NCBI RefSeq assembly: GCF_021295395.1
Contig: NZ_JAIWOU010000004.1
Location: 1 to 40,122 of the forward strand
Source of the DNA: Komagataeibacter sp. FNDCR2
Lineage (GTDB): Bacteria > Pseudomonadota > Alphaproteobacteria > Acetobacterales > Acetobacteraceae
Length of the DNA: 40,122 nt
Direction: 5' to 3'
The number at the start of each line of letters is the position of its first letter. The first letter of the stretch is position 1. Positions 404-36,767 of the stretch are shown here, in pieces. The notes under the pieces were generated by a model. That model had not been told where the DNA came from. It was given only the letters and a program-made list of their open reading frames with translations, and did not search any database. A program made the position numbers and the translations under genes.

Positions 404-519
404 CGCCTGTTCGCTTTTGCGATTGACGGCTCCGTTTTCCCATCCTATGAATCCTGCACGAATCGTTAAGGACTCGAACGGGTTATGGGAGGACATCTTT
501 CTGCAATTTTGTAAATGAA

Positions 520-721: not shown

Positions 722-1243
722 GTGTCAGTTCGGAAAAGCCGTGCCCAGATCATCAAGTCTCTGATCTGGAAACATCACGACATGAAAAATATCACTCGCG
801 GAGAGTTCATGGTTCTCACCGCGCTCGCCAATTTTCCCGAGAAAAATGGAGTGCGTTTCCCGTCTTTCGAGACTCTGGCGCGAGCTGCCCGAGTGTCGTT
901 GAGAACCGCGAAGTATGCCATCAAGGCGGCAGTCGCTCTCGGGATCGTCTCGCGCACTCAGCGGAGTGTCCGCAATGGCTGGCGATGGGTAAGGACAAGC
1001 AACGCCTATCGGTTCATCGTCGGAAAAGTCGAGCGAGCTGACCCGTCTCTCAAACGACCTTGGGCGTCCGTTTCTTCCAAGTGCAAAGATTGCACAGGAC
1101 CATTTATAGATATTAAAAATACTAGCTCTAATAGGGAGAGCGGACATTCCGTGGGCGACTGGTTGAAGATTTTGGCCGGTATGGATCAGGGGATGTCTCC
1201 GCGTGAAGCAGGGTATCGAGGACCAGCCGAGAATGGCTCATGA
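722..1243 (+). CDS. Helix-turn-helix protein (HTH_36-like, replication-initiator or regulator type)
   Basis: Residues 21-100 have the pattern of the helix-turn-helix domain common in phage and plasmid replication initiators and regulators: a helix (GEFMVLTALANF), then RFPSFETLARAARVS with RTAKYAIKAAVALGIV as the recognition part. The GTG start at 722 has GGAG ten bases upstream. ATG at 782 is an in-frame alternative that would remove 20 basic residues. The C-terminal 70 residues are not recognised and look poorly structured. An AT-rich island at 1103-1133 interrupts the otherwise GC-rich frame and contains a T7-promoter-like string. It could act in replication initiation or early control; the sequence does not decide. 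Confidence 0.75.
   Translation: MSVRKSRAQIIKSLIWKHHDMKNITRGEFMVLTALANFPEKNGVRFPSFETLARAARVSLRTAKYAIKAAVALGIVSRTQRSVRNGWRWVRTSNAYRFIVGKVERADPSLKRPWASVSSKCKDCTGPFIDIKNTSSNRESGHSVGDWLKILAGMDQGMSPREAGYRGPAENGS
1081..1139 (+). promoter_or_regulatory. AT-rich island with T7-promoter-like sequence
   Basis: The 23 bases at 1117-1139 match the T7 class III promoter consensus at 16 positions, including AATAC and ATAGGGAGA at the proper spacing. The initiating G would be 1134. Immediately upstream is an inverted repeat GTGCAA-AGA-TTGCAC (1081-1095), whose second arm could also serve as a -35 (TTGCAC). The site lies in the 3' part of the helix-turn-helix gene and would serve the two rightward genes at 1233 and 1342. 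This is only one copy and the genome's polymerase is not T7's own, so it is tentative. Confidence 0.35.
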
Positions 1244-1341: not shown

Positions 1342-1953
1342 ATGTTGCGAAGGACTATGCTAGCGGCTGGCATCATCGGGCTGACAATGGGAGCTGTAGC
1401 AAGCAGCGCGTATCCGCATCCTGTCACGCCCGCAGAGGATCGGGAGATACAGGAGCTTTCCATCGAGGCGGCGAACGACTACCGCGCGAAGCATCCACAG
1501 AAGGCCGAGAAAACATCGTCCTATGATTTCTGTGGGAAGATGGGATTTTGTCCTGGCGGTGACTTCGGTTCAAAGCCCGCTGTCCAGACCACCAAGCTGT
1601 CACGCGGACCGGATGATGCCCAGAGGCAGGCGGCAGCATACCGCAGCATGACCCCGAGACAGCGAGCAATTCTGGACCGACTGGACAATCAGGAAGCGTC
1701 TGTGTTCTCGCAGCCTGCTCCGACAGTGCAGACCTACCCCGTCGCCGTTCCTGTGGTGATACCATCCCCCGTTACGCGGTATGCGCCCGCATATGTCGAT
1801 CAGCCTGTTCAACCTGTCGTGCCCGTCGAGGGACTGCCTCACCAGATCACAGCGGTTCGGAATGGGCCTGTCACGTCCGTAACGGATGCAATGGGGGGAT
1901 CGGCAACCTGCATGAACGCTGGGATCACGACAAGCTGCACTGTGATGCCCTGA
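1342..1953 (+). CDS. Secreted or periplasmic hypothetical protein (203 aa)
   Basis: The ATG at 1342 follows GAGGACAAGAGA. Residues 1-23 form a signal peptide: basic MLRR, hydrophobic core, and an Ala-rich end (AVASSAYP) with a plausible signal peptidase I site. The mature part starts with a charged helical region, has a Cys pair (FCGKMGFC), and continues with a Pro/Val-rich segment near residues 120-165 (QTYPVAVPVVIPSP) and two more Cys near the end. No family is recognised. An exported protein among early-type genes of a T7-like phage is unusual, and a role at the cell surface, such as blocking superinfection, is only a guess. A terminator follows at 1956-1997. Confidence 0.65.
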   Translation: MLRRTMLAAGIIGLTMGAVASSAYPHPVTPAEDREIQELSIEAANDYRAKHPQKAEKTSSYDFCGKMGFCPGGDFGSKPAVQTTKLSRGPDDAQRQAAAYRSMTPRQRAILDRLDNQEASVFSQPAPTVQTYPVAVPVVIPSPVTRYAPAYVDQPVQPVVPVEGLPHQITAVRNGPVTSVTDAMGGSATCMNAGITTSCTVMP

Positions 1954-2206
1954 AAAGGCTCCCTGAAATAAAGGGAGGGTGGCTGATTTTTTTTTTTAAA
2001 TTGGATGGGGAGGGGGGGCGGTATTTTTTTTTAATCGGCGGCCGAGCGCCTGGACCCGCTCGATGGCCGCTCGGGCGCAGGCGCGTGGGGTCAGAAACCT
2101 TCCCGGTAATGCCTCTAGGGTTCCCGCGATAGATGGGAGAGGGCATCCGCACGGCAACGGGCCGGTTGAATTGATAGGCGGCCTGTTGAGTCGTCGTTGT
2201 GTGCAT
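1925..2206 (-). CDS. Possible small protein from leftward promoter P1 (93 aa)
   Basis: The ATG at 2206 lies about 20 bases downstream of the -10 of a near-consensus sigma70 promoter (2227-2255), with GGGG close to the start. The first 60 residues, rich in Thr, Gln, Pro and Arg, look protein-like. The end runs through long A and C runs and into the opposite terminator, and is unlikely to be meaningful. An overlapping frame (1996-2271) also reads well near LTPRACARAAIERVQALGRR, so a frameshift or an RNA product is possible. No function can be given. Confidence 0.25.
   Translation of the reverse strand: MHTTTTQQAAYQFNRPVAVRMPSPIYRGNPRGITGKVSDPTRLRPSGHRAGPGARPPIKKKYRPPSPSNLKKKISHPPFISGSLFRASQCSLS
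1956..1997 (+). terminator. Rho-independent terminator with CCCTGAAATAAAGGG stem-loop
   Basis: CTCCCT (1959-1964) pairs with AGGGAG (1972-1977) around GAAATAA, and a run of eleven T follows at 1987-1997. The same 15-bp stem-loop sequence recurs after the capsid gene (22494) and after the nucleotide kinase gene (35854). It ends the rightward transcript of the secreted protein gene. Confidence 0.7.
1984..2035. repeat. Homopolymer cluster (T11, G7, T9)
   Basis: Three long single-base runs lie within about 45 bases: T at 1987-1997, G at 2012-2018 and T at 2024-2032. The cluster lies where rightward transcription from 1342 and leftward transcription from 2220 would meet. Runs of this length are prone to slippage and sequencing error. 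Confidence 0.8.
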
Positions 2207-2226: not shown

Positions 2227-2255
2227 TGTATAGTTCCCTTTTGCGAACCCGTCAA
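2227..2255 (-). promoter_or_regulatory. Leftward promoter P1 with operator in its spacer
   Basis: On the minus strand the order is TTGACG (2255-2250), a 17-base spacer GGTTCGCAAAAGGGAAC, then TATACA (2232-2227). This is a near-consensus sigma70 promoter. The spacer holds an imperfect inverted repeat, GTTCnC-4-GnGAAC, found in five places in the window. Such placement is typical of repressor operators. The transcript would start near 2220. Confidence 0.7.
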
Positions 2256-3865: not shown

Positions 3866-3894
3866 TACCTAGTTCCCTTTTGCGAACTGGTCAA
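3866..3894 (-). promoter_or_regulatory. Leftward promoter P2 with operator in its spacer
   Basis: Read leftward: TTGACC (3894-3889), a 17-base spacer AGTTCGCAAAAGGGAAC, then TAGGTA (3871-3866). The -35 is near consensus; the -10 is weaker. The spacer has the same operator-like repeat as P1, here with perfect AGTTC/GAACT arms. It would transcribe the 197-aa gene and the small genes beyond it. Confidence 0.65.
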
Positions 3895-3901
3895 CCTGTT
3901 T

Positions 3902-4240
3902 TTAGGCAGCAAGCCAGCGCAAAGCCGATGCAAGCCCCTCGGCTGTGTCCGTGTCCACAGACAGGACGCCAAAGGCTGCCGCCACTTCCCGGCCTTCCTC
4001 TAGGGTCAGATTCCCACATTCCAGATTATACGCGAGAATGGATAGGCCCTTGGCTTTGCACTTCTCTGGGTTTGCAGCGTGCCATCCTGGTTCCTCACTG
4101 TCCCAGTTAGCCTGCACAGCGGGGGACAGGTCCGACCATTCAACCCGTGGGATCATGCGGCCGATGTTGTAATACGGCCAAGCCTTAACATCGGCTTCAT
4201 AGTTCAGCTGTCCGCGTGTCTTTGTCGTGATCTTCATCAT
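3902..4240 (-). CDS. Hypothetical protein (112 aa)
   Basis: ATG at 4240 follows ACAGGACAAACAAC; a second ATG is the next codon. The sequence has Trp-rich patches (KAWPYYNIGR, PRVEWSDLSP, EEPGWHA) and a regular helical C-terminus (EEGREVAAAFGVLSVDTDTAEGLASALRWLAA). It looks like a folded soluble protein without recognised domain. It lies between P3/P4 and P2 and ends right against P2's -35. Confidence 0.65.
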   Translation of the reverse strand: MMKITTKTRGQLNYEADVKAWPYYNIGRMIPRVEWSDLSPAVQANWDSEEPGWHAANPEKCKAKGLSILAYNLECGNLTLEEGREVAAAFGVLSVDTDTAEGLASALRWLAA

Positions 4241-4293
4241 GTTGTTTGTCCTGTATGTGTGTGTAGTTAAGGGAGGGTTTCAGGGAGGGTCGA

Positions 4294-4380
4294 TCAGTCA
4301 AACCGCTTGCCAAAGAACGGCATCCCGACCAGCAGAACACCAAGCATTGCGATGCCAAAATCCGTAAAAAGTGCGTCCAT
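4294..4380 (-). CDS. Membrane microprotein (28 aa)
   Basis: ATG at 4380 has GGAG nine bases upstream (CGGAGATCACCACA), a better ribosome site than any longer version of this frame. The peptide has one hydrophobic segment (FGIAMLGVLLVGMPFF) and a basic end (GKRFD). It is the first gene behind the paired P4/P3 promoter-operator sites. Single-span peptides of this size in phages often act on the membrane or its proteins; the target is unknown. Confidence 0.5.
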   Translation of the reverse strand: MDALFTDFGIAMLGVLLVGMPFFGKRFD

Positions 4381-4433
4381 TGTGGTGATCTCCGATTGGT
4401 CATGCTGTGCAGGCATGTCCGTGTGTGACTGTC

Positions 4434-4462
4434 TCGCCAGTTCCCTTTTGCGAACCGGTAAG
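4434..4462 (-). promoter_or_regulatory. Operator repeat P3 (weak promoter)
   Basis: The spacer-type repeat GGTTCGCAAAAGGGAAC (4456-4440) is intact, but the flanking hexamers (CTTACC and TGGCGA) are poor promoter elements. It lies 33 bases downstream of P4. It may be a second operator for P4 rather than a promoter. Confidence 0.55.
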
Positions 4463-4466
4463 CCTG

Positions 4467-4495
4467 TATCTAGTTCCCTTTTGCGAACCATGCAA
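4467..4495 (-). promoter_or_regulatory. Leftward promoter P4 with operator in its spacer
   Basis: Read leftward: TTGCAT (4495-4490), a 17-base spacer GGTTCGCAAAAGGGAAC, then TAGATA (4472-4467). It is a reasonable sigma70 promoter for the leftward genes beginning at 4380, with the operator-like repeat in the spacer as in P1 and P2. Confidence 0.6.
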
Positions 4496-4624
4496 CCCAT
4501 AAAATGCGATCTGGTGCATTTTTCTTCGCCCTGGCACTGATCAGCCAGAAATACACACGCATAATGCAGGCGCACGAATGGACGGCCACAGAAGGGCAGG
4601 GGAGGGCCTAAGAAGGTCTCTGGT

Positions 4625-4822
4625 ATGATCGTATGCGATGAAGTCCAGAAGGCATCCACGGGGCGAATATGGGCCGCTTTGGACATGCTTAGGACGTGCG
4701 TGGCCGTGATGGGTCTGTTTGGGTGCGTGATGGGCGTTGTGGGTGTGCGTTATGATCGGTTTTTTCGATCAAAAGACCATCCATTGATCGGTCAGAACGA
4801 TTGTGGATATTATCACACGTAA
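4625..4822 (+). CDS. Doubtful small protein with a hydrophobic segment (65 aa)
   Basis: ATG at 4625 has AGAAGG about eight bases upstream. The frame has one hydrophobic stretch (CVAVMGLFGCVMGVVGV) and a charged end. It stands alone between leftward and rightward units, its composition is unusual for this window and it overlaps repeats near 4754-4820. It may be chance. Confidence 0.2.
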   Translation: MIVCDEVQKASTGRIWAALDMLRTCVAVMGLFGCVMGVVGVRYDRFFRSKDHPLIGQNDCGYYHT

Positions 4823-5124
4823 TCGGTCAGTCATGTGCGATAACACCGCGCTCGACACGATCCACAGCGCATTTTGTTGGCATAAGATTTCTTATCACAC
4901 ATTTCATGGAGTCCCGCACGGTCCACTAGAACGCCCTGCCCTACTCCGAATCCGTTTCAAAATCGGCGGCTAAAACCGCGCGAATGTTGTTGTTCGACGG
5001 AACCGAGCGGTGTGACCGCCTGGAGATTTTTGGGACTCCGGGCCGGTCCCTCAAGTGACCCTGAAAGGGAGCCTTTGAACTGCCTATAACACACTGATTT
5101 CAAACAACAAACAGGCACTTGGCG

Positions 5125-5149
5125 GCATATAGAGCTGATATTTGCACAA
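5125..5149 (+). promoter_or_regulatory. Repeat A: candidate phage-polymerase promoter
   Basis: The 25 bases here are identical to those at 15854-15878 and differ at two positions from 27308-27332; the core is TAGAGCTGATATTTGCA. This copy lies 50 bases before the tail fibre gene. All three copies face the same way, ahead of rightward gene blocks, as promoters for a single-subunit polymerase would. The start point cannot be assigned from the sequence. Confidence 0.6.
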
Positions 5150-15805: not shown

Positions 15806-16123
15806 GTGAGTATCGAAAAACTGAACGAAATCAGCGAGTTATGCGATTTTCTCGCATATAGAGCTGATATTTGCACAACAAATCGCGTCGCAGCTCTAAA
15901 AGAGGTCGAGAATAACACGCCATGGGCATCCATGTCAATCTCCCTCCCTGCAAGCTGCCACGCCGTAAGGGAACACATAAAGGAATTGATCAGTGGATGT
16001 GAGCAAGGAAGCGACGACGAACGAAGCGCCGAAACGGAAATGGCAGGGAAGCCCCGAAAATCTGGAAGCACTGCGAAAAGCACGGGAAAAGAGCCTCGCT
16101 CTAAACCGCGCCGGAGCGGTTAA
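15806..16123 (+). CDS. Small hypothetical protein overlapping the small terminase gene (105 aa)
   Basis: GTG at 15806 follows AAAGGATAAGCT and comes four bases after the previous stop. The first 60 residues are well formed (a helical MSIEKLNEISELCDFLAYRA and a second helix HAVREHIKELI). The last 40 overlap the terminase frame and are Ser/Lys-rich. Repeat B lies inside codons 17-25. If repeat B is a promoter, the gene would be split between two transcripts. Function unknown. Confidence 0.5.
   Translation: MSIEKLNEISELCDFLAYRADICTTNRVAALKEVENNTPWASMSISLPASCHAVREHIKELISGCEQGSDDERSAETEMAGKPRKSGSTAKSTGKEPRSKPRRSG
15854..15878 (+). promoter_or_regulatory. Repeat B: candidate phage-polymerase promoter
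   Basis: All 25 bases are identical to repeat A at 5125-5149, although the flanks differ. It lies about 115 bases before the small terminase gene and would drive the head genes from 15993 on. Confidence 0.6.
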
Positions 16124-22475: not shown

Positions 22476-22487
22476 TCCGCCAACCAG

Positions 22488-22521
22488 AAGGCTCCCTGAA
22501 ATAAAGGGGGCCTTCTTTTTT
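22488..22521 (+). terminator. Post-capsid terminator
   Basis: AAGGCTCCCT (22488-22497) pairs with AGGGGGCCTT (22505-22514) around GAAATAA, followed by T-rich bases to 22521. It shares CCCTGAAATAAAGGG with sites at 1961 and 35854. The position after the capsid gene matches T7's T-phi. Confidence 0.85.
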
Positions 22522-24039: not shown

Positions 24040-24057
24040 TATACGCAAAAGGGAACT
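24040..24057 (+). promoter_or_regulatory. Operator repeat P5 upstream of the winged-helix gene
   Basis: TATACGCAAAAGGGAACT carries the same 14-base core (CGCAAAAGGGAACT) as the four leftward promoters. Here it faces rightward, and its left arm (ATACG for GTTCG) is altered. Flanking hexamers (ATTCCC and TGAACG) are poor promoter elements, so it is better read as an operator. It lies 18 bases upstream of the regulator's start codon. Confidence 0.6.
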
Positions 24058-24074
24058 GAACGGGAGCATTCACC

Positions 24075-24413
24075 ATGGTCGATGAAGAACACAAAAAGGC
24101 CCGCGTCCAGCGCGTGCTGGCGTTCTTTACCAAGAACCGTGAGGAATTAGGACTAAGCCCCATTCAGGTGTCAGTGCTGATGGCCACGTATGTTTACCCC
24201 GGCTTGTTGGAGCAGAACGTGGCCCCCATGCTCGGTTGTGGAAAAACAACAGTTTACGATGCGTGTATCAGCCTGATGGGACCAAAAGCGCCCCCAGCGG
24301 CAAAGCAGAATCTAATAACACCTATTCAGTATCTTGATAGGGTAAGGACCGATGCGGGGATATTGCTGCGATTAACCCCACCGGGGCAGGGTTTAGTGGA
24401 GATGCTGGTATAA
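24075..24413 (+). CDS. Winged-helix DNA-binding regulator (possible repressor), 112 aa
   Basis: ATG at 24075 follows CGGGAGCATTCACC. The protein has a MarR-like layout: a helical N-terminus (HKKARVQRVLAFFTKNREEL), a helix-turn-helix (SPIQVSVLMATYVYPG, then APMLGCGKTTVYDACISLMG), and a wing and closing helix (DAGILLRLTPPGQGLVEML). The LTPPGQ phrase resembles the LTxxG turn of winged-helix regulators. It is preceded by operator repeat P5 and followed by the RNA polymerase gene, so self-regulation and control of the early promoters that carry the same repeat are likely. The binding link is inference from placement. Confidence 0.55.
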   Translation: MVDEEHKKARVQRVLAFFTKNREELGLSPIQVSVLMATYVYPGLLEQNVAPMLGCGKTTVYDACISLMGPKAPPAAKQNLITPIQYLDRVRTDAGILLRLTPPGQGLVEMLV

Positions 24414-24651
24414 AATTGCCGCACTCACTAACACTTTCTATCACGGACAGGGTTGCGCCAATGCTCATGCTCTGAAACATATCTGGGAGGGCACTTTTTG
24501 GTTCCCAACCCTGATGCGAATGCGCTAAGGGTTGCCATGGCTTGTTCTCGTTCTGTTCCTGCACAGAATGGGATGAGGGCATTCCGGTCGCACACACATA
24601 CGCCGGGGCTAGGCTGCACACCTACCCCGGCACACATACGAGGATTGTCAG
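24414..24651. promoter_or_regulatory. Leader of the RNA polymerase gene with two hairpins
   Basis: These 238 bases hold no supported gene. CAACCCT (24506-24512) and AGGGTTG (24528-24534) can pair around a 15-base loop with a TGCG repeat. Just before the start codon, GCCGGGGCTAGG (24602-24613) pairs with CCTACCCCGGC (24621-24631) with one bulged base, and the direct repeat CACACATACG flanks it at 24593 and 24631. The hairpin ends about 20 bases before the ATG, so it may affect translation or RNA processing. Confidence 0.5.
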
Positions 24652-27261
24652 ATGGCAACTACTCTTGAGGCCGCGCAGATAGAGCGCGAGCATAACGCGC
24701 TTCTTGTGGGGCGCGAACGGGCGTCCATACGCGATGCACGGGCAGCCATTAACGGGCTGGCCACGCGGGCAGAAAAGCTGACCATGCCGGTAATGGTCGC
24801 GCTGGTGGCAGGCTTTTTGCAGGCCCAGCTGGATCACTATGATACGGGCAAGGTCGGTAAGCGTCCTGCGTGGTATTCTGTCCTGAAACGGGTTGATCTG
24901 CCTACCGTTGCGTCCGCAGCCCTGCAATGCGTGTGGAATGCAGCTTATTCTCGCGCCACGCTGACCTACACCTTGCTCCAGCTGGGCGGGATACTGGATG
25001 CCATTCAGGCGAATGCACCCCTGAAGCGGGGCCGCAGCGGTTTGCGGGCCAAGAAATCCGACATAGGGGAATCTGCGTGGGACGACAGCACGCGCGTGCT
25101 GATGGGCGCACCTTTGTGGAATGCGGCCAGCGTCACCTGCCTGTTCCGCCTGACAGAAACGGAAGGAAAGCTGAAGAAATACCGCGCCGGGTTTTCCAAG
25201 GAAGCGAATGAGCTGCTGAACGATGTCGAAGGCAGTAACCTGATGGTTTCGCCACCGTTCCGACCTATGCTTGTCCGGCCGCTTCCGTGGAAGAACCGAC
25301 GCAGCGGGGCCTATCTGACCAGCCAGATGCAGCAGTTTCTACCGCTGGTCCGTAAGCAATGCCCTGAATCGCGCACAGCCATCAATAAGGCCATTCGTGC
25401 GGGCACCATGAAGCCCGTGCTTCGGGCCGTGAACAGCCTCCAGTCTGTACGCCTGTCCGTTAATCCTGATGCGCTCGCGTTGCGCAAGCACGTGTGGGAT
25501 GCGGGCATTCACATACCGGACGTTACCCCCTTGCGCACGCCGCTGCACGTTGACGCGCGTGTGCCTGGGTGCATTTCGCTTTGGACCAAGAGGGACCGTG
25601 CCCGGTATATGCAGCGCAGGCACAAGGCGTTGTCCATCAATGGGGGAATACCCGCAGGCATAGCACAGTGGGAGCGGGACACCTATGAGGCTGACCTGCT
25701 GCTGACCTTTGGTATGCCCTTTTACCAGCCGCATATGCTGGACTTTCGAGGCCGTGTGTATCCTGCACCGGCCTTTTCCCATCATCGGGGCGATGCCACG
25801 AAGGCTTTGATCCAGTTTTATGACGCTAAACCGTTAGGCGAGCATGGGCTGTTCTGGCTGAAAGTTCATGTGGCCAACACCGGGGACTTTGAGAAGGTCA
25901 GCAAGGAGCCGTTCGAGGTCCGCGTCCGGTGGGTGGACGATAATCTGCACCTGATCCGTGCAATGGTTGCGGCCCCTTCAGCCTCCCGCATGTGGCAGGA
26001 AGCCGACGCCCCTTTCAGTTTCTATGCGGCCTGCTGTGACCTGATCCGTGCGCTGGACGACCCTGATCCGGCCAAGTATGAATCACGCATACCCGTGGCG
26101 CTGGACGGGTCTAATTCGGGCGTCCAGCACTATAGCGCGGCGACGCGGGCACCTGAAGGTGTCCATGTGTGTCTGGTTGACCCTGACCGGCCCCACGATC
26201 TTTATGCTGAGGTCGCCAAGGAATGCCAGAGCATTTGCGAGGCGGACGCCAAGGGGCTTCAGGCAGCTGACCCGTCTGACTACCTGGACCAGATCAGCCA
26301 CCAGATCGACACGATCAATGAAGCGGCCAGGACGCGGGCTGGAGACGCCAAGATTGTCATGACGGATGCCGAGAAAGCGGAACTGGACCGCCTCAGCGCC
26401 GAAAAAATGAAGGCAGCCGCCGCACAGTGGATGGGGGTGGGCATCACCCGTTCCATCGTAAAACGCCCGGTCATGACCTTCGGCTATTCAGCCGTGGCTT
26501 ATGGCTTTAGCCAGCAGATACGGGACGATTACATGAGCGGCCTGTCCCTGCGCGTCATGGCCGGAGAGGACGACCAGCACGCATTCGGGGCAGATGAAGG
26601 GGCAGCGGCGTCCACCTATCTGGGCAAGGCTATATACCAAGCGACGAAGGCTGTTCTGCCGAACGTCAGCGCGGCAATGAGCTGGCTTCAACATGCCGCA
26701 TCGGTTCTGGCGGGCGAGAGCAAGGGCGTTGAAATGGTGACGCCCACGGGCTTTCCCATGATACAGCGTACGACAGAGGAAGTGGCCACGCCTGTGCGGG
26801 CCATGCTGGCACCGGCAGGCATCAAGTGGGATGGCTGGATGGGTCGTTCGGAAATGGTCGGCAGCACCTTCTTGGCCCAGCTGCAACTTCTTACCTACGC
26901 GCCAGACCCTAAGCGCGTGAACAAGTCTGCCCAGAAGTCCGCAATCAGTCCGAACGTGATCCATGCCTGCGATGCGGCCCATCTGACCATGACCGTTAAT
27001 GCCATGGCTGACGCAGGCCATCTGGATATGCTGGTGATCCACGACTCATTCGCCAGCCATGCAGGCAATGCCAACGATCTGTCCCACATCACACGGGAGC
27101 AGATGGTGGCCCTGTATGAGAACTGGAGTCCGCTGGCGGACATATATGAGAGGGCAATGGCCGTCCTGAGCGATGAAGGGAAGGCTAAATTGCAGCCACC
27201 GCCCCCTCAAGGAGACCTTGATCTTCGCGTGCTGCTGAAAGCTAAATACGCCTTCGCGTGA
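24652..27261 (+). CDS. Single-subunit DNA-dependent RNA polymerase (T7 type)
   Basis: The 869-residue protein carries all catalytic features of T7 RNA polymerase: DFRGRVYPA (residue 364 on), VALDGSNSGVQHYS with catalytic Asp at about 485, RSIVKRPVMTFGY with Lys 604 and Tyr 612 spaced exactly as T7 Lys631/Tyr639, and IHDSF with the second catalytic Asp near 798. It ends in KYAFA, like T7's FAFA. ATG at 24652 follows AGGATTGTCAG. It should transcribe the phage's own genes from dedicated promoters, with the 25-bp repeats as candidates. It lies after the structural genes, unlike T7 where it is in the early region. A terminator follows. Confidence 0.95.
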   Translation: MATTLEAAQIEREHNALLVGRERASIRDARAAINGLATRAEKLTMPVMVALVAGFLQAQLDHYDTGKVGKRPAWYSVLKRVDLPTVASAALQCVWNAAYSRATLTYTLLQLGGILDAIQANAPLKRGRSGLRAKKSDIGESAWDDSTRVLMGAPLWNAASVTCLFRLTETEGKLKKYRAGFSKEANELLNDVEGSNLMVSPPFRPMLVRPLPWKNRRSGAYLTSQMQQFLPLVRKQCPESRTAINKAIRAGTMKPVLRAVNSLQSVRLSVNPDALALRKHVWDAGIHIPDVTPLRTPLHVDARVPGCISLWTKRDRARYMQRRHKALSINGGIPAGIAQWERDTYEADLLLTFGMPFYQPHMLDFRGRVYPAPAFSHHRGDATKALIQFYDAKPLGEHGLFWLKVHVANTGDFEKVSKEPFEVRVRWVDDNLHLIRAMVAAPSASRMWQEADAPFSFYAACCDLIRALDDPDPAKYESRIPVALDGSNSGVQHYSAATRAPEGVHVCLVDPDRPHDLYAEVAKECQSICEADAKGLQAADPSDYLDQISHQIDTINEAARTRAGDAKIVMTDAEKAELDRLSAEKMKAAAAQWMGVGITRSIVKRPVMTFGYSAVAYGFSQQIRDDYMSGLSLRVMAGEDDQHAFGADEGAAASTYLGKAIYQATKAVLPNVSAAMSWLQHAASVLAGESKGVEMVTPTGFPMIQRTTEEVATPVRAMLAPAGIKWDGWMGRSEMVGSTFLAQLQLLTYAPDPKRVNKSAQKSAISPNVIHACDAAHLTMTVNAMADAGHLDMLVIHDSFASHAGNANDLSHITREQMVALYENWSPLADIYERAMAVLSDEGKAKLQPPPPQGDLDLRVLLKAKYAFA

Positions 27262-27307: not shown

Positions 27308-27332
27308 GCATTTAGAGCTGATATTTGCATAA
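27308..27332 (+). promoter_or_regulatory. Repeat C: candidate phage-polymerase promoter
   Basis: The 25 bases match repeats A and B except for two changes (T for A at the fifth base, T for C near the end). It lies directly behind the RNA polymerase terminator and ahead of the replication genes, a typical promoter position. Confidence 0.6.
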
Positions 27333-35868: not shown

Positions 35869-35945
35869 AGGGTTGCGTAAAGGGAGCCTTGCAGGGAGCC
35901 TTTCAGACATGCAATAGTCCGCTCTGCACACAATGGAGAGTAACA

Positions 35946-36767
35946 ATGACCGAGCATGTTGAGGCTTCCCTCACTCCAATCTTTCACGACTTCCCGGTAA
36001 CATCGAAGGACATGGTAAAGGTCCGCACAGTGGACATTGAGGGCCGCCTCATGTTCGTGCTGACGGACGTTTGCAGCATCCTCGGGAACCGGCCGGACAA
36101 TCTGAAGTCTATCTTCGCGGATGGCGAGCGCCAGACGCACAAAGTCCTGACTTCACGCGGGCCGCAGAACGCAGTCATGGTCACTGAATCCGGGCTGTAT
36201 AAGGCGATCCTGCGAGCGCACCGGAACACTGAAGTGGCCACCCGGTTTCAGGATTGGGTGACGCAATCCGTCCTGCCGACCGTTCGCAGTCGTGGGGCGT
36301 ATGTGAAGGGCGAGGAAATCATCAATGACCCCACGGTTCCAGACAGCGTACGCGCCGAGGTCGCCTTGCAGACGGTTGAGACGCTTCAGCAGCGTGTGGC
36401 CGAGCTGACGCAGGCGGCTGAGACCTTCAAGGCGAAGGCCGAGGCTTTTGACCAGATCATGAATCGGGCATCAAAGAACCTGTCCGTCCGACAGGTTGCC
36501 AGACGGCTGTCTGGTGTGAACCTGCGTCTGGTGATGGGCACTCTGGTGGAGCTTGGATACCTTCGGAAAGCGGCAGCCGGATATTCCGTGCCCTCACAAT
36601 ATCGCGGCCGGTATTTCGACGAAACGTGGTCGCAGTTCCACGGCGCAAACACAATCAACGTGCTGCCTGAAGGGGTCGCCCTTATGGAGCGACTTTACCA
36701 GCGTGGGAAGTTCCAGCTGGTAAAACGCGCTGTCGTTAGGAAGGTGGCGAAAACAAAGAAGGAATGA
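35946..36767 (+). CDS. BRO-N family antirepressor-like protein (273 aa)
   Basis: ATG at 35946 follows GGAGAGTAACA. The N-terminal region (residues 20-115) has the BRO-N/antirepressor pattern: VRTVDIEGRLMFVLTDVCSILGNRP, KVLTSRGPQNAVMVTESGLYKAILR and FQDWVTQSVLPTVR. The C-terminal region (about 165-260) resembles the KilA-C/ANT part (AFDQIMNRASKNLSVRQVAR, LVELGYLRK). Such proteins counter a phage repressor. One in a T7-like genome is notable, given the operator repeats and winged-helix protein here. Promoter for it was not seen. Confidence 0.8.
   Translation: MTEHVEASLTPIFHDFPVTSKDMVKVRTVDIEGRLMFVLTDVCSILGNRPDNLKSIFADGERQTHKVLTSRGPQNAVMVTESGLYKAILRAHRNTEVATRFQDWVTQSVLPTVRSRGAYVKGEEIINDPTVPDSVRAEVALQTVETLQQRVAELTQAAETFKAKAEAFDQIMNRASKNLSVRQVARRLSGVNLRLVMGTLVELGYLRKAAAGYSVPSQYRGRYFDETWSQFHGANTINVLPEGVALMERLYQRGKFQLVKRAVVRKVAKTKKE

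What the first reader, a model, noticed from the sequence alone, without database searches (positions are those of the whole stretch)
3866..4495. Operator-like repeat placed exactly in the spacer of leftward early promoters
GTTCGCAAAAGGGAAC occupies the same position in the 17-nt spacer of P1 (TTGACG/TATACA, 2227-2255), P2 (TTGACC/TAGGTA) and P4 (TTGCAT/TAGATA). It recurs at P3 (4434-4462) with weak promoter hexamers. A fifth, altered copy lies at 24040. A 14-base core repeated five times is far above chance. It has imperfect dyad symmetry (GTTCnC-4-GnGAAC). Repressor-controlled leftward promoters are expected for temperate phages, not for T7-like phages.
Basis: partly seen in the sequence, partly recalled or inferred. 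Interest (0 to 1): 0.75.

Follow-up and report, generated by a model that had tools for sequence, protein, structure and literature searches.

The report
Shared operator-like site in phage-plasmid promoters
A T7-like virus that seems to live as a plasmid in acetic acid bacteria carries the same 16-letter DNA site in front of several small leftward genes and, slightly altered, in front of its own RNA polymerase operon; it is probably the docking site of a repressor that keeps the virus quiet, but no repressor is proven.

Summary
The repeat is real. GTTCGCAAAAGGGAAC occurs four times exactly on the minus strand (2233, 3872, 4440, 4473); a fifth copy with two mismatches lies on the plus strand at 24041. 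All five share CGCAAAAGGGAACT and recur unchanged in the one close relative found (Acetobacter sp. UBA5411).

The window is a whole 40,122-bp contig, circular or permuted by comparison with its relative. It has a T7-type RNA polymerase (24652-27261), SU10-like head genes, a plasmid-type Rep and a dif-like site: probably a phage-plasmid.

The main rival, that the 16-mer is the phage polymerase's own promoter, became less likely. A different 25-bp repeat (5125, 15854, 27308; all rightward) sits just after the polymerase gene and before late gene blocks; its start, GCA(C/T)AA, recurs in repeats beside the polymerase of another genome of the same family.

The sigma-70-like frame around the leftward copies is the best of 360 tested, but only P1 is a good promoter match; P3 and P5 are poor.

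Best reading: an operator of a phage-encoded repressor coupling leftward promoters to the polymerase operon. The 112-aa protein after P5 is only a candidate; homology tests for a MarR-type regulator failed.

The parts
2227..2255 (-). P1: TTGACG - 17 nt holding the 16-mer (2233-2248) - TATACA; upstream of a short leftward reading frame starting at 2206
3866..3894 (-). P2: TTGACC - 16-mer (3872-3887) - TAGGTA; upstream of the leftward 197-aa frame 3776-3183
4434..4462 (-). P3: 16-mer (4440-4455) with poor hexamers CTTACC/TGGCGA; 33 bp from P4
4467..4495 (-). P4: TTGCAT - 16-mer (4473-4488) - TAGATA; upstream of a presumed 28-codon gene (internal ATG at 4380, end 4294) and the 112-aa frame 4240-3902. 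P3 and P4 also lie inside a 130-codon frame 4686-4294 that I judged non-coding
   Evidence: two substitutions in the first hexamer in the relative
24041..24056 (+). [quoted passage not shown]
24075..24413 (+). 112-aa protein, candidate DNA-binding regulator (unproven)
   Evidence: position after P5; weak resemblance to MarR-family proteins; negative
24652..27261 (+). T7-type single-subunit RNA polymerase, 869 aa
   Evidence: PF00940 2.1e-77, phrog_414 7.9e-153
27308..27332 (+). phi motif copy 3, probable phage-polymerase promoter, starts 47 bp after the polymerase stop
15854..15878 (+). phi motif copy 2, before the terminase/portal/capsid block
5125..5149 (+). phi motif copy 1, before the tail gene block
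722..1243 (+). Rep-like replication initiator, related to proteins of small plasmids of acetic acid bacteria
   Evidence: phrog_391, HTH_36, tblastn 30-40% identity in the 12 of 36 plasmid records listed
4874..4898 (.). dif-like site, 3 mismatches to one place on the host chromosome
   Evidence: the name dif is recalled

Best explanation
The 16-mer is a binding site (operator) for a phage-encoded transcription repressor. It is built into the spacer of host-type promoters for the leftward genes (P1, P2, P4, with P3 as a neighbouring auxiliary site 33 bp from P4). A weaker copy, P5, controls the operon that begins with the 112-aa gene and leads to the T7-type RNA polymerase. While the element persists as a plasmid, the bound repressor would keep the leftward early genes and the polymerase off. 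When repression is lifted, host RNA polymerase would make the phage polymerase, which then reads the late genes from the phi promoters (27308, 5125, 15854). Shown: the sites, their positions, their identity in one relative, the polymerase, the phi repeats. Inferred: that a protein binds, that it represses, that it may be the 112-aa protein (about one in three), that phi is the polymerase's promoter, and that the element is temperate.
For: Five copies, intergenic in my hand-made gene model (9.5% of the window intergenic; P3/P4 are a judgement), each upstream of genes it faces. The best sigma-70 frame of 360 puts the 16-mer exactly in the 17-nt spacer. The 16-mer is letter-identical in four copies whose hexamers differ, and the core is kept at P5, so the element itself is what is conserved. 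All five copies are unchanged in the UBA5411 relative, while the aligned stretches around P1-P4 differ at 29 of 672 sites. No sign of a host regulon: exact only on this contig in the host genome, and found in 1 of 397 genomes of the same family, this one, so the binder is probably phage-encoded. A different repeat has the positions of the phage-polymerase promoter. Precedent: in temperate T7-like phages a repressor acting at the polymerase promoter is proposed (PMC10134795 section 12).
Against: No binding protein is identified; a MarR profile gave the 112-aa protein E = 11, no better than its shuffles, and it shows no relation to the MarR-like regulators of Pasto and HTVC019P. The dyad is imperfect and weaker still at P5, odd for a dimeric repressor. 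Only P1 is a good sigma-70 match, and the standard scan flagged none of P1-P4. P5 has no good host promoter around it. No integrase or partition gene was found among the 48 reading frames searched (of 215 listed). Zero changes in the 64 bp of P1-P4 against the relative is weak evidence (about 2.8 expected from 29/672), and the whole 201-bp P5 region is unchanged.
Confidence: 0.55

Rival explanations
1. The 16-mer is the promoter of the phage's own T7-type RNA polymerase, with start at GGGAAC, and the resemblance to sigma-70 hexamers is incidental.
For: The core TCGCAAAAGGGA looks like the promoters of T7 (for instance TCACTAAAGGGA in phi3.8) and like the Pasto repeats. All five copies face the genes they precede. 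The core common to all five is asymmetric. One copy precedes the polymerase operon. A few best matches at other offsets are nominally significant (P1 14 of 23, p 0.004; P3 and P4 13, p 0.027; P5 to the Pasto consensus 13, p 0.024).
Against: Aligned on the 16-mer over 23 bp, the match to the T7 promoter consensus (10-12 positions) lies within the range of random window segments (mean of maxima 10.3, 95% at 12). The phi repeat has the canonical positions and precedes three blocks. No plus-strand copy precedes any structural gene.
Confidence: 0.17
2. The 16-mer binds a phage-encoded activator that helps host RNA polymerase at poor promoters (middle-promoter style), rather than a repressor.
For: P2, P3 and P4 have weak hexamers, and P5 poor ones too, around a conserved element.
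Against: The element fills the spacer between the hexamers, where repressors are more usual (established knowledge, not tested here); P1 should need little help. No activator gene identified.
Confidence: 0.13
3. Four copies arose by recent duplication of one leftward promoter, and the identical spacer has no separate function.
For: P1-P3 also share flanking bases.
Against: Flanks and hexamers have diverged between copies while the 16-mer has not; P5 faces the other way, 20 kb off, and shares mainly the core.
Confidence: 0.08
4. The sites are centromere- or Rep-binding sites of the plasmid state, dispersed as in some phage-plasmids.
For: The element has a plasmid-type Rep and a dif-like site; four of five copies lie in a 2.3-kb stretch near it.
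Against: No ParA/ParB-type gene was found among the 48 frames searched (of 215); spacing is irregular (33, 568 and 1639 bp), unlike iterons; the copies sit before gene starts.
Confidence: 0.04

Closest known systems
Temperate T7-like phages with a proposed MarR-like switch (LUZ100, Pasto, HTVC019P)
   Same: T7-type polymerase; a small gene upstream of it; a proposed repressor acting at sites by the polymerase promoter (PMC10134795, section 12); annotations of Pasto and HTVC019P show regulator, integrase, polymerase in that order.
   Different: No integrase found here among the frames searched; the 112-aa protein is not detectably related to the regulators of Pasto and HTVC019P; the element carries a plasmid-type Rep; the sites also precede a leftward gene block.
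T7-family phage promoters
   Same: Directional, core resembling CACTAAAGGGA.
   Different: Aligned whole-length match is at chance level, and another repeat holds the expected positions.
Phage-plasmids
   Same: Virion genes plus plasmid-type Rep on a separate, circular or permuted contig.
   Different: No listed paper in my searches combined this with a T7-type polymerase (open-access library only, judged from listings).
Plasmids of Acetobacter, Gluconobacter, Komagataeibacter
   Same: Homologous Rep, 30-40% identity in the rows listed; a 24-base dif-like stretch shared exactly with two large Komagataeibacter plasmids.
   Different: Their gene content was not examined here.

Membership tests
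Repressor operator in host-type promoters | Repeated site overlapping sigma-70 promoter elements | tested here: inconclusive
   Best of 360 frames, but only P1 is a good match, P3 and P5 are poor, and the standard scan flagged none
Repressor operator in host-type promoters | Dyad symmetry | tested here: inconclusive
   10/16 in P1-P4 (2.7% of the window's 16-mers), 6/16 in P5
Repressor operator in host-type promoters | A cognate protein binds and represses | not testable with these tools
   Needs gel shift and reporter assay
Promoter of the cognate T7-type RNA polymerase | Copies in front of middle and late gene blocks | tested here: not met
   The only plus-strand copy is upstream of the polymerase operon; the phi repeat fills those positions
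Promoter of the cognate T7-type RNA polymerase | Resemblance to the T7-family consensus over 23 bp | tested here: inconclusive
   Aligned matches 10-12 of 23, within the null range; some single-site best matches at other offsets have p 0.004-0.03
Temperate T7-like phages with MarR-like switch | Regulator of phrog_9665 / MarR type | tested here: not met
   for the 112-aa protein
Temperate T7-like phages with MarR-like switch | Tyrosine integrase | tested here: not met
   No integrase hit among 48 frames (of 215 listed) searched
Phage-plasmid | Virion genes and a plasmid replication gene on one extrachromosomal molecule | tested here: met
   by sequence only
Phage-plasmid | Autonomous, stable replication in the host | not testable with these tools
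   An infection caught in the assembly would look the same
Alphaproteobacterial LexA box (GTTC-N7-GTTC, recalled) | Direct GTTC repeat with 7 nt between | tested here: not met
   The 16-mer is GTTC-N8-GAAC; the LexA pattern occurs twice in the window (mean 1.0 in shuffles), not at these sites

The most novel reading that the evidence does not exclude
A T7-like phage that persists as a plasmid rather than by integration, held quiet by a repressor of a so far undescribed protein family (the 112-aa protein) that acts on one operator regulon joining the leftward promoters to the phage polymerase operon, so that lifting one repressor releases both host-read early genes and the single-subunit polymerase.
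Probability: 0.3. Interest if true: 0.65.

Novelty: new variant of a known kind. Interest (0 to 1): 0.5.

Why it matters
How T7-like phages, long taken as strictly lytic, hold their polymerase silent in a lasting state is open; the LUZ100 authors present their MarR model as a hypothesis (PMC10134795). This element offers a compact, testable set: five near-identical sites, one polymerase, three probable phage promoters and one candidate regulator. The pairing of a plasmid-type Rep with a T7-type polymerase would add another way of living to this phage group, and the polymerase-promoter pair might serve as an expression tool in acetic acid bacteria.

Tried and rejected
Phage-polymerase promoter was my own lead hypothesis until one search showed the phi repeat; it is now a rival. 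MarR membership of the 112-aa protein: suggested by eye and by weak hits (best foreign E 0.0013, per genome). Of ten such loci looked at, five look like MarR proteins by eye and one of these, L184, was confirmed by Pfam; others look like a transporter part, an ABC ATPase or noise. A MarR profile from 26 proteins chosen without reference to it scored it no better than its shuffles, and Pfam, NCBIfam and PHROGs gave no HTH hit. Its single-sequence model has pLDDT 49.8; Foldseek gave 29 matches, none significant (best E 4.1; a transcriptional regulator, PcaV, ranks second at E 4.6, which is no evidence). Host regulon: not supported (six one-mismatch hits in the genome, as many as the reversed control gives in all). 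LexA box: rejected. Relatives in viral contigs: the 16-mer gave 6 stretches with one copy each; the 14-mer gave 118 stretches, of which the 80 listed each have one copy; polymerase, portal and 112-aa queries gave none. Within the genus the polymerase was found in 1 of 19 genomes, this one, and the capsid protein in 1 of 60 relatives, this one. Window 1-25000 has no near match in the phage or plasmid collections; 25001-40122 was not searched that way. Pasto repeats first looked like operators but look rather like its own GGG-type phage promoters. The polymerase tree leaves the window's polymerase on a very long branch, so kinship does not decide which promoter type to expect. The gap before the polymerase gene folds only slightly better than shuffles (z -1.73, 9 of 200 at least as good). 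No Rfam family. The comparison with UBA5411 is too close to be decisive. PMC9379143 (prophages of Acetobacter): passages only; the words Autographiviridae and RNA polymerase do not occur in its held text.

Full report
OBSERVATION. The 16-mer GTTCGCAAAAGGGAAC is present four times exactly on the minus strand (2233-2248, 3872-3887, 4440-4455, 4473-4488) and once with two mismatches on the plus strand (24041-24056); a further match with three mismatches lies at 409-424. Six matches at up to three mismatches compare with 0.27 expected, and 0 of 100 shuffles reached six. All five main copies share CGCAAAAGGGAACT. In the whole 3.29-Mb, five-contig host genome the exact 13-mer is found only at these five places; there are six further one-mismatch hits, and the reversed control pattern gives six in all. 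All five copies are intergenic in my hand-made gene model, in which 9.5% of the window is intergenic. For P3 and P4 this rests on judging a 130-codon minus-strand frame (4294-4686) non-coding; in the relative that frame is broken by a stop near its start, but a later start is not excluded. Shorter or opposite-strand frames overlap the other sites too.

THE REPLICON. The window is the whole of a 40,122-bp contig. It encodes a T7-type RNA polymerase (PF00940 2.1e-77; phrog_414 7.9e-153), T7-like ssDNA-binding protein, primase-helicase, family A DNA polymerase, exonuclease and ligase, an endonuclease, and SU10-like portal and capsid, terminase and tail genes. A close relative lies in the MAG Acetobacter sp. 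UBA5411 (polymerase 98% identical in the best segment). One of its contigs runs without a break across the window's two ends (window 1 and 40122 adjoin), so the molecule is circular or circularly permuted. The Rep-like protein at 722-1243 is related to proteins of plasmids of Acetobacter, Komagataeibacter and Gluconobacter (30-40% identity in the 12 rows listed of 36 matching records). A site at 4874-4898 matches, with three mismatches, one place on the host chromosome; related short matches were found in 6 of the 18 other genomes of the genus, and 24 bases occur exactly in two Komagataeibacter plasmids. I recall such sites as dif; the name comes from no call. Together this suggests a phage-plasmid; an infection caught in the assembly is not excluded.

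CONSERVATION. All five copies are present in UBA5411, four on one contig and one on another, with the same relative placing, and all five 16-mer places are unchanged. The aligned stretches around P1-P4 differ at 29 of 672 positions and the P5 region at 0 of 201, so this is weak evidence. P4's first hexamer has two changes. The 16-mer was found in 1 of 397 genomes of the same family, this one.

HOST-TYPE PROMOTER FRAME. Summed over P1-P4, the frame with the 16-mer exactly in a 17-nt spacer is the best of 360 (26 matches to TTGACA/TATAAT; next 23). Random quadruplets given the same freedom reach 26 in 0.1-0.2% of 2000 draws, with the caveat that the four copies are probably related. Singly, P1 has 9 of 12 (reached at 7.5e-5 of places in the window), P2 7 (0.7%), P4 6 (3.3%), P3 4 (27%). 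The standard scan did not flag them. P5 has 4 of 12 in that frame; the best pair near it is TAGACG-17-TATACG, 8 of 12, overlapping the site.

PHAGE-POLYMERASE PROMOTER OR NOT. The core resembles T7-type promoters, and this was my first reading. Two results changed it. First, a different repeat, GCATATAGAGCTGATATTTGCACAA, occurs at 5125 and 15854 (exact) and 27308 (two mismatches), all rightward and intergenic in my model. One copy starts 47 bp after the polymerase stop; T7 has phi1.1A 26 bp after its polymerase stop by annotation. The other two precede the terminase-portal-capsid and tail blocks. All three are in UBA5411, one of them with one further change. Second, in G367 of the same family, which has a 916-aa polymerase frame, a repeat of at least 15 bp occurs four times, all in the polymerase's direction: upstream of the region of polymerase similarity, just after the polymerase stop, and twice more. 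In three of the four it runs on into GCACAA or GCATAA. G115 has two copies of a 22-bp repeat with TTTGCACA, one at the polymerase's end. Against this: G115, G377 and G046 have short polymerase frames (540-591 aa) of another branch, G377's repeat lacks this start, and G046 shows no repeat of 15 bp beside its polymerase in the one stretch scanned (L163; L164 was not scanned). Aligned on the 16-mer over 23 bp, the sites match the T7 consensus at 10-12 positions, within the null; some best matches at other offsets are nominally significant, for instance P1 with 14 of 23 (p 0.004). I give the promoter reading 0.17.

WHO BINDS. The 112-aa protein begins 18 bp after P5. It had hits with E up to 0.1 in 21 of 249 genomes, its own included; some of the best are MarR-like. 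But a MarR profile built from 26 independently chosen proteins gave E = 11, among its own shuffles. Comparison with the regulators of Pasto and HTVC019P is at chance level (59 and 250 of 500 shuffles as good), whereas those two match each other (0 of 500). Pfam, NCBIfam and PHROGs give no HTH. AlphaFold2 without an alignment gives pLDDT 49.8 with helices that could fit an HTH, and Foldseek found nothing significant. It is a candidate by position.

MECHANISM. Best reading: an operator regulon. P1, P2 and P4 would be host-read promoters for the leftward genes with a repressor site in the spacer; P3, 33 bp from P4 (about three helical turns), an auxiliary site; P5 the control of the 112-aa/polymerase operon. 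The LUZ100 paper reports the proposal, for some temperate T7-like phages, that a MarR-like protein represses the polymerase through sites at its promoter (PMC10134795: section 12 read in full, passages of other sections seen); it cites Boeckman 2022, which I did not see. The idea of such a switch is therefore not new; the plasmid-type replicon, the leftward block under the same site and the unrelated candidate regulator would be.

LITERATURE LIMITS. Three searches combining phage-plasmid, T7-like or Autographiviridae, polymerase, replication or Acetobacter terms listed 0, 5 and 2 papers, none of which looks like such a system from its listing; nor does the listing of 10 of 35 papers for phages of acetic acid bacteria. 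The library is open-access only.

Noticed in passing
window 5125-5149, 15854-15878, 27308-27332 (+): A 25-bp repeat, probably the promoter of the phage's T7-type RNA polymerase; present in UBA5411.
   Followed up: yes
L178 (G367), L165 (G115), L179 (G377): Other genomes of the family with phage-type polymerases have repeats at or just after the polymerase end; G367 and G115 share a GCACA start with the window's repeat, G377 does not.
   Followed up: partly
window 4874-4898: dif-like site resembling chromosomal sites in the genus and two Komagataeibacter plasmids; possible dimer-resolution or Xer integration site.
   Followed up: partly
window 722-1243: Plasmid-type Rep on a T7-like phage genome.
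   Followed up: partly
window 409-424 (-): Three-mismatch copy AATCGCAAAAGCGAAC; its 13-mer with one mismatch is also in UBA5411. Function unknown.
   Followed up: no
window 1961, 22494, 35854 (+): CCCTGAAATAAAGG(G) repeated three times; the copy in 22486-22516 forms a terminator-like hairpin with 12 pairs.
   Followed up: no
window 1925-2206 (-): The reading frame after P1 differs between window and UBA5411 by a four-base length difference, so its true extent is unclear.
   Followed up: no
window 4294-4686 (-): 130-codon frame holding P3 and P4 in phase; stopped early in UBA5411.
   Followed up: partly
window 24354-24656: The two UBA5411 contigs reach this gap between the 112-aa gene's end and the polymerase gene and stop; could be an assembly break or a physical genome end.
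   Followed up: no
window 35889-36767 (+): BRO-N domain protein, a type often found as phage antirepressor (recalled).
   Followed up: no
L225 (Pasto) 552, 698, 1301, 3533, 8868, 11856, 12370: Repeats TAGTCACTCAAGGG..., probably Pasto's phage promoters, before and after its polymerase gene.
   Followed up: partly
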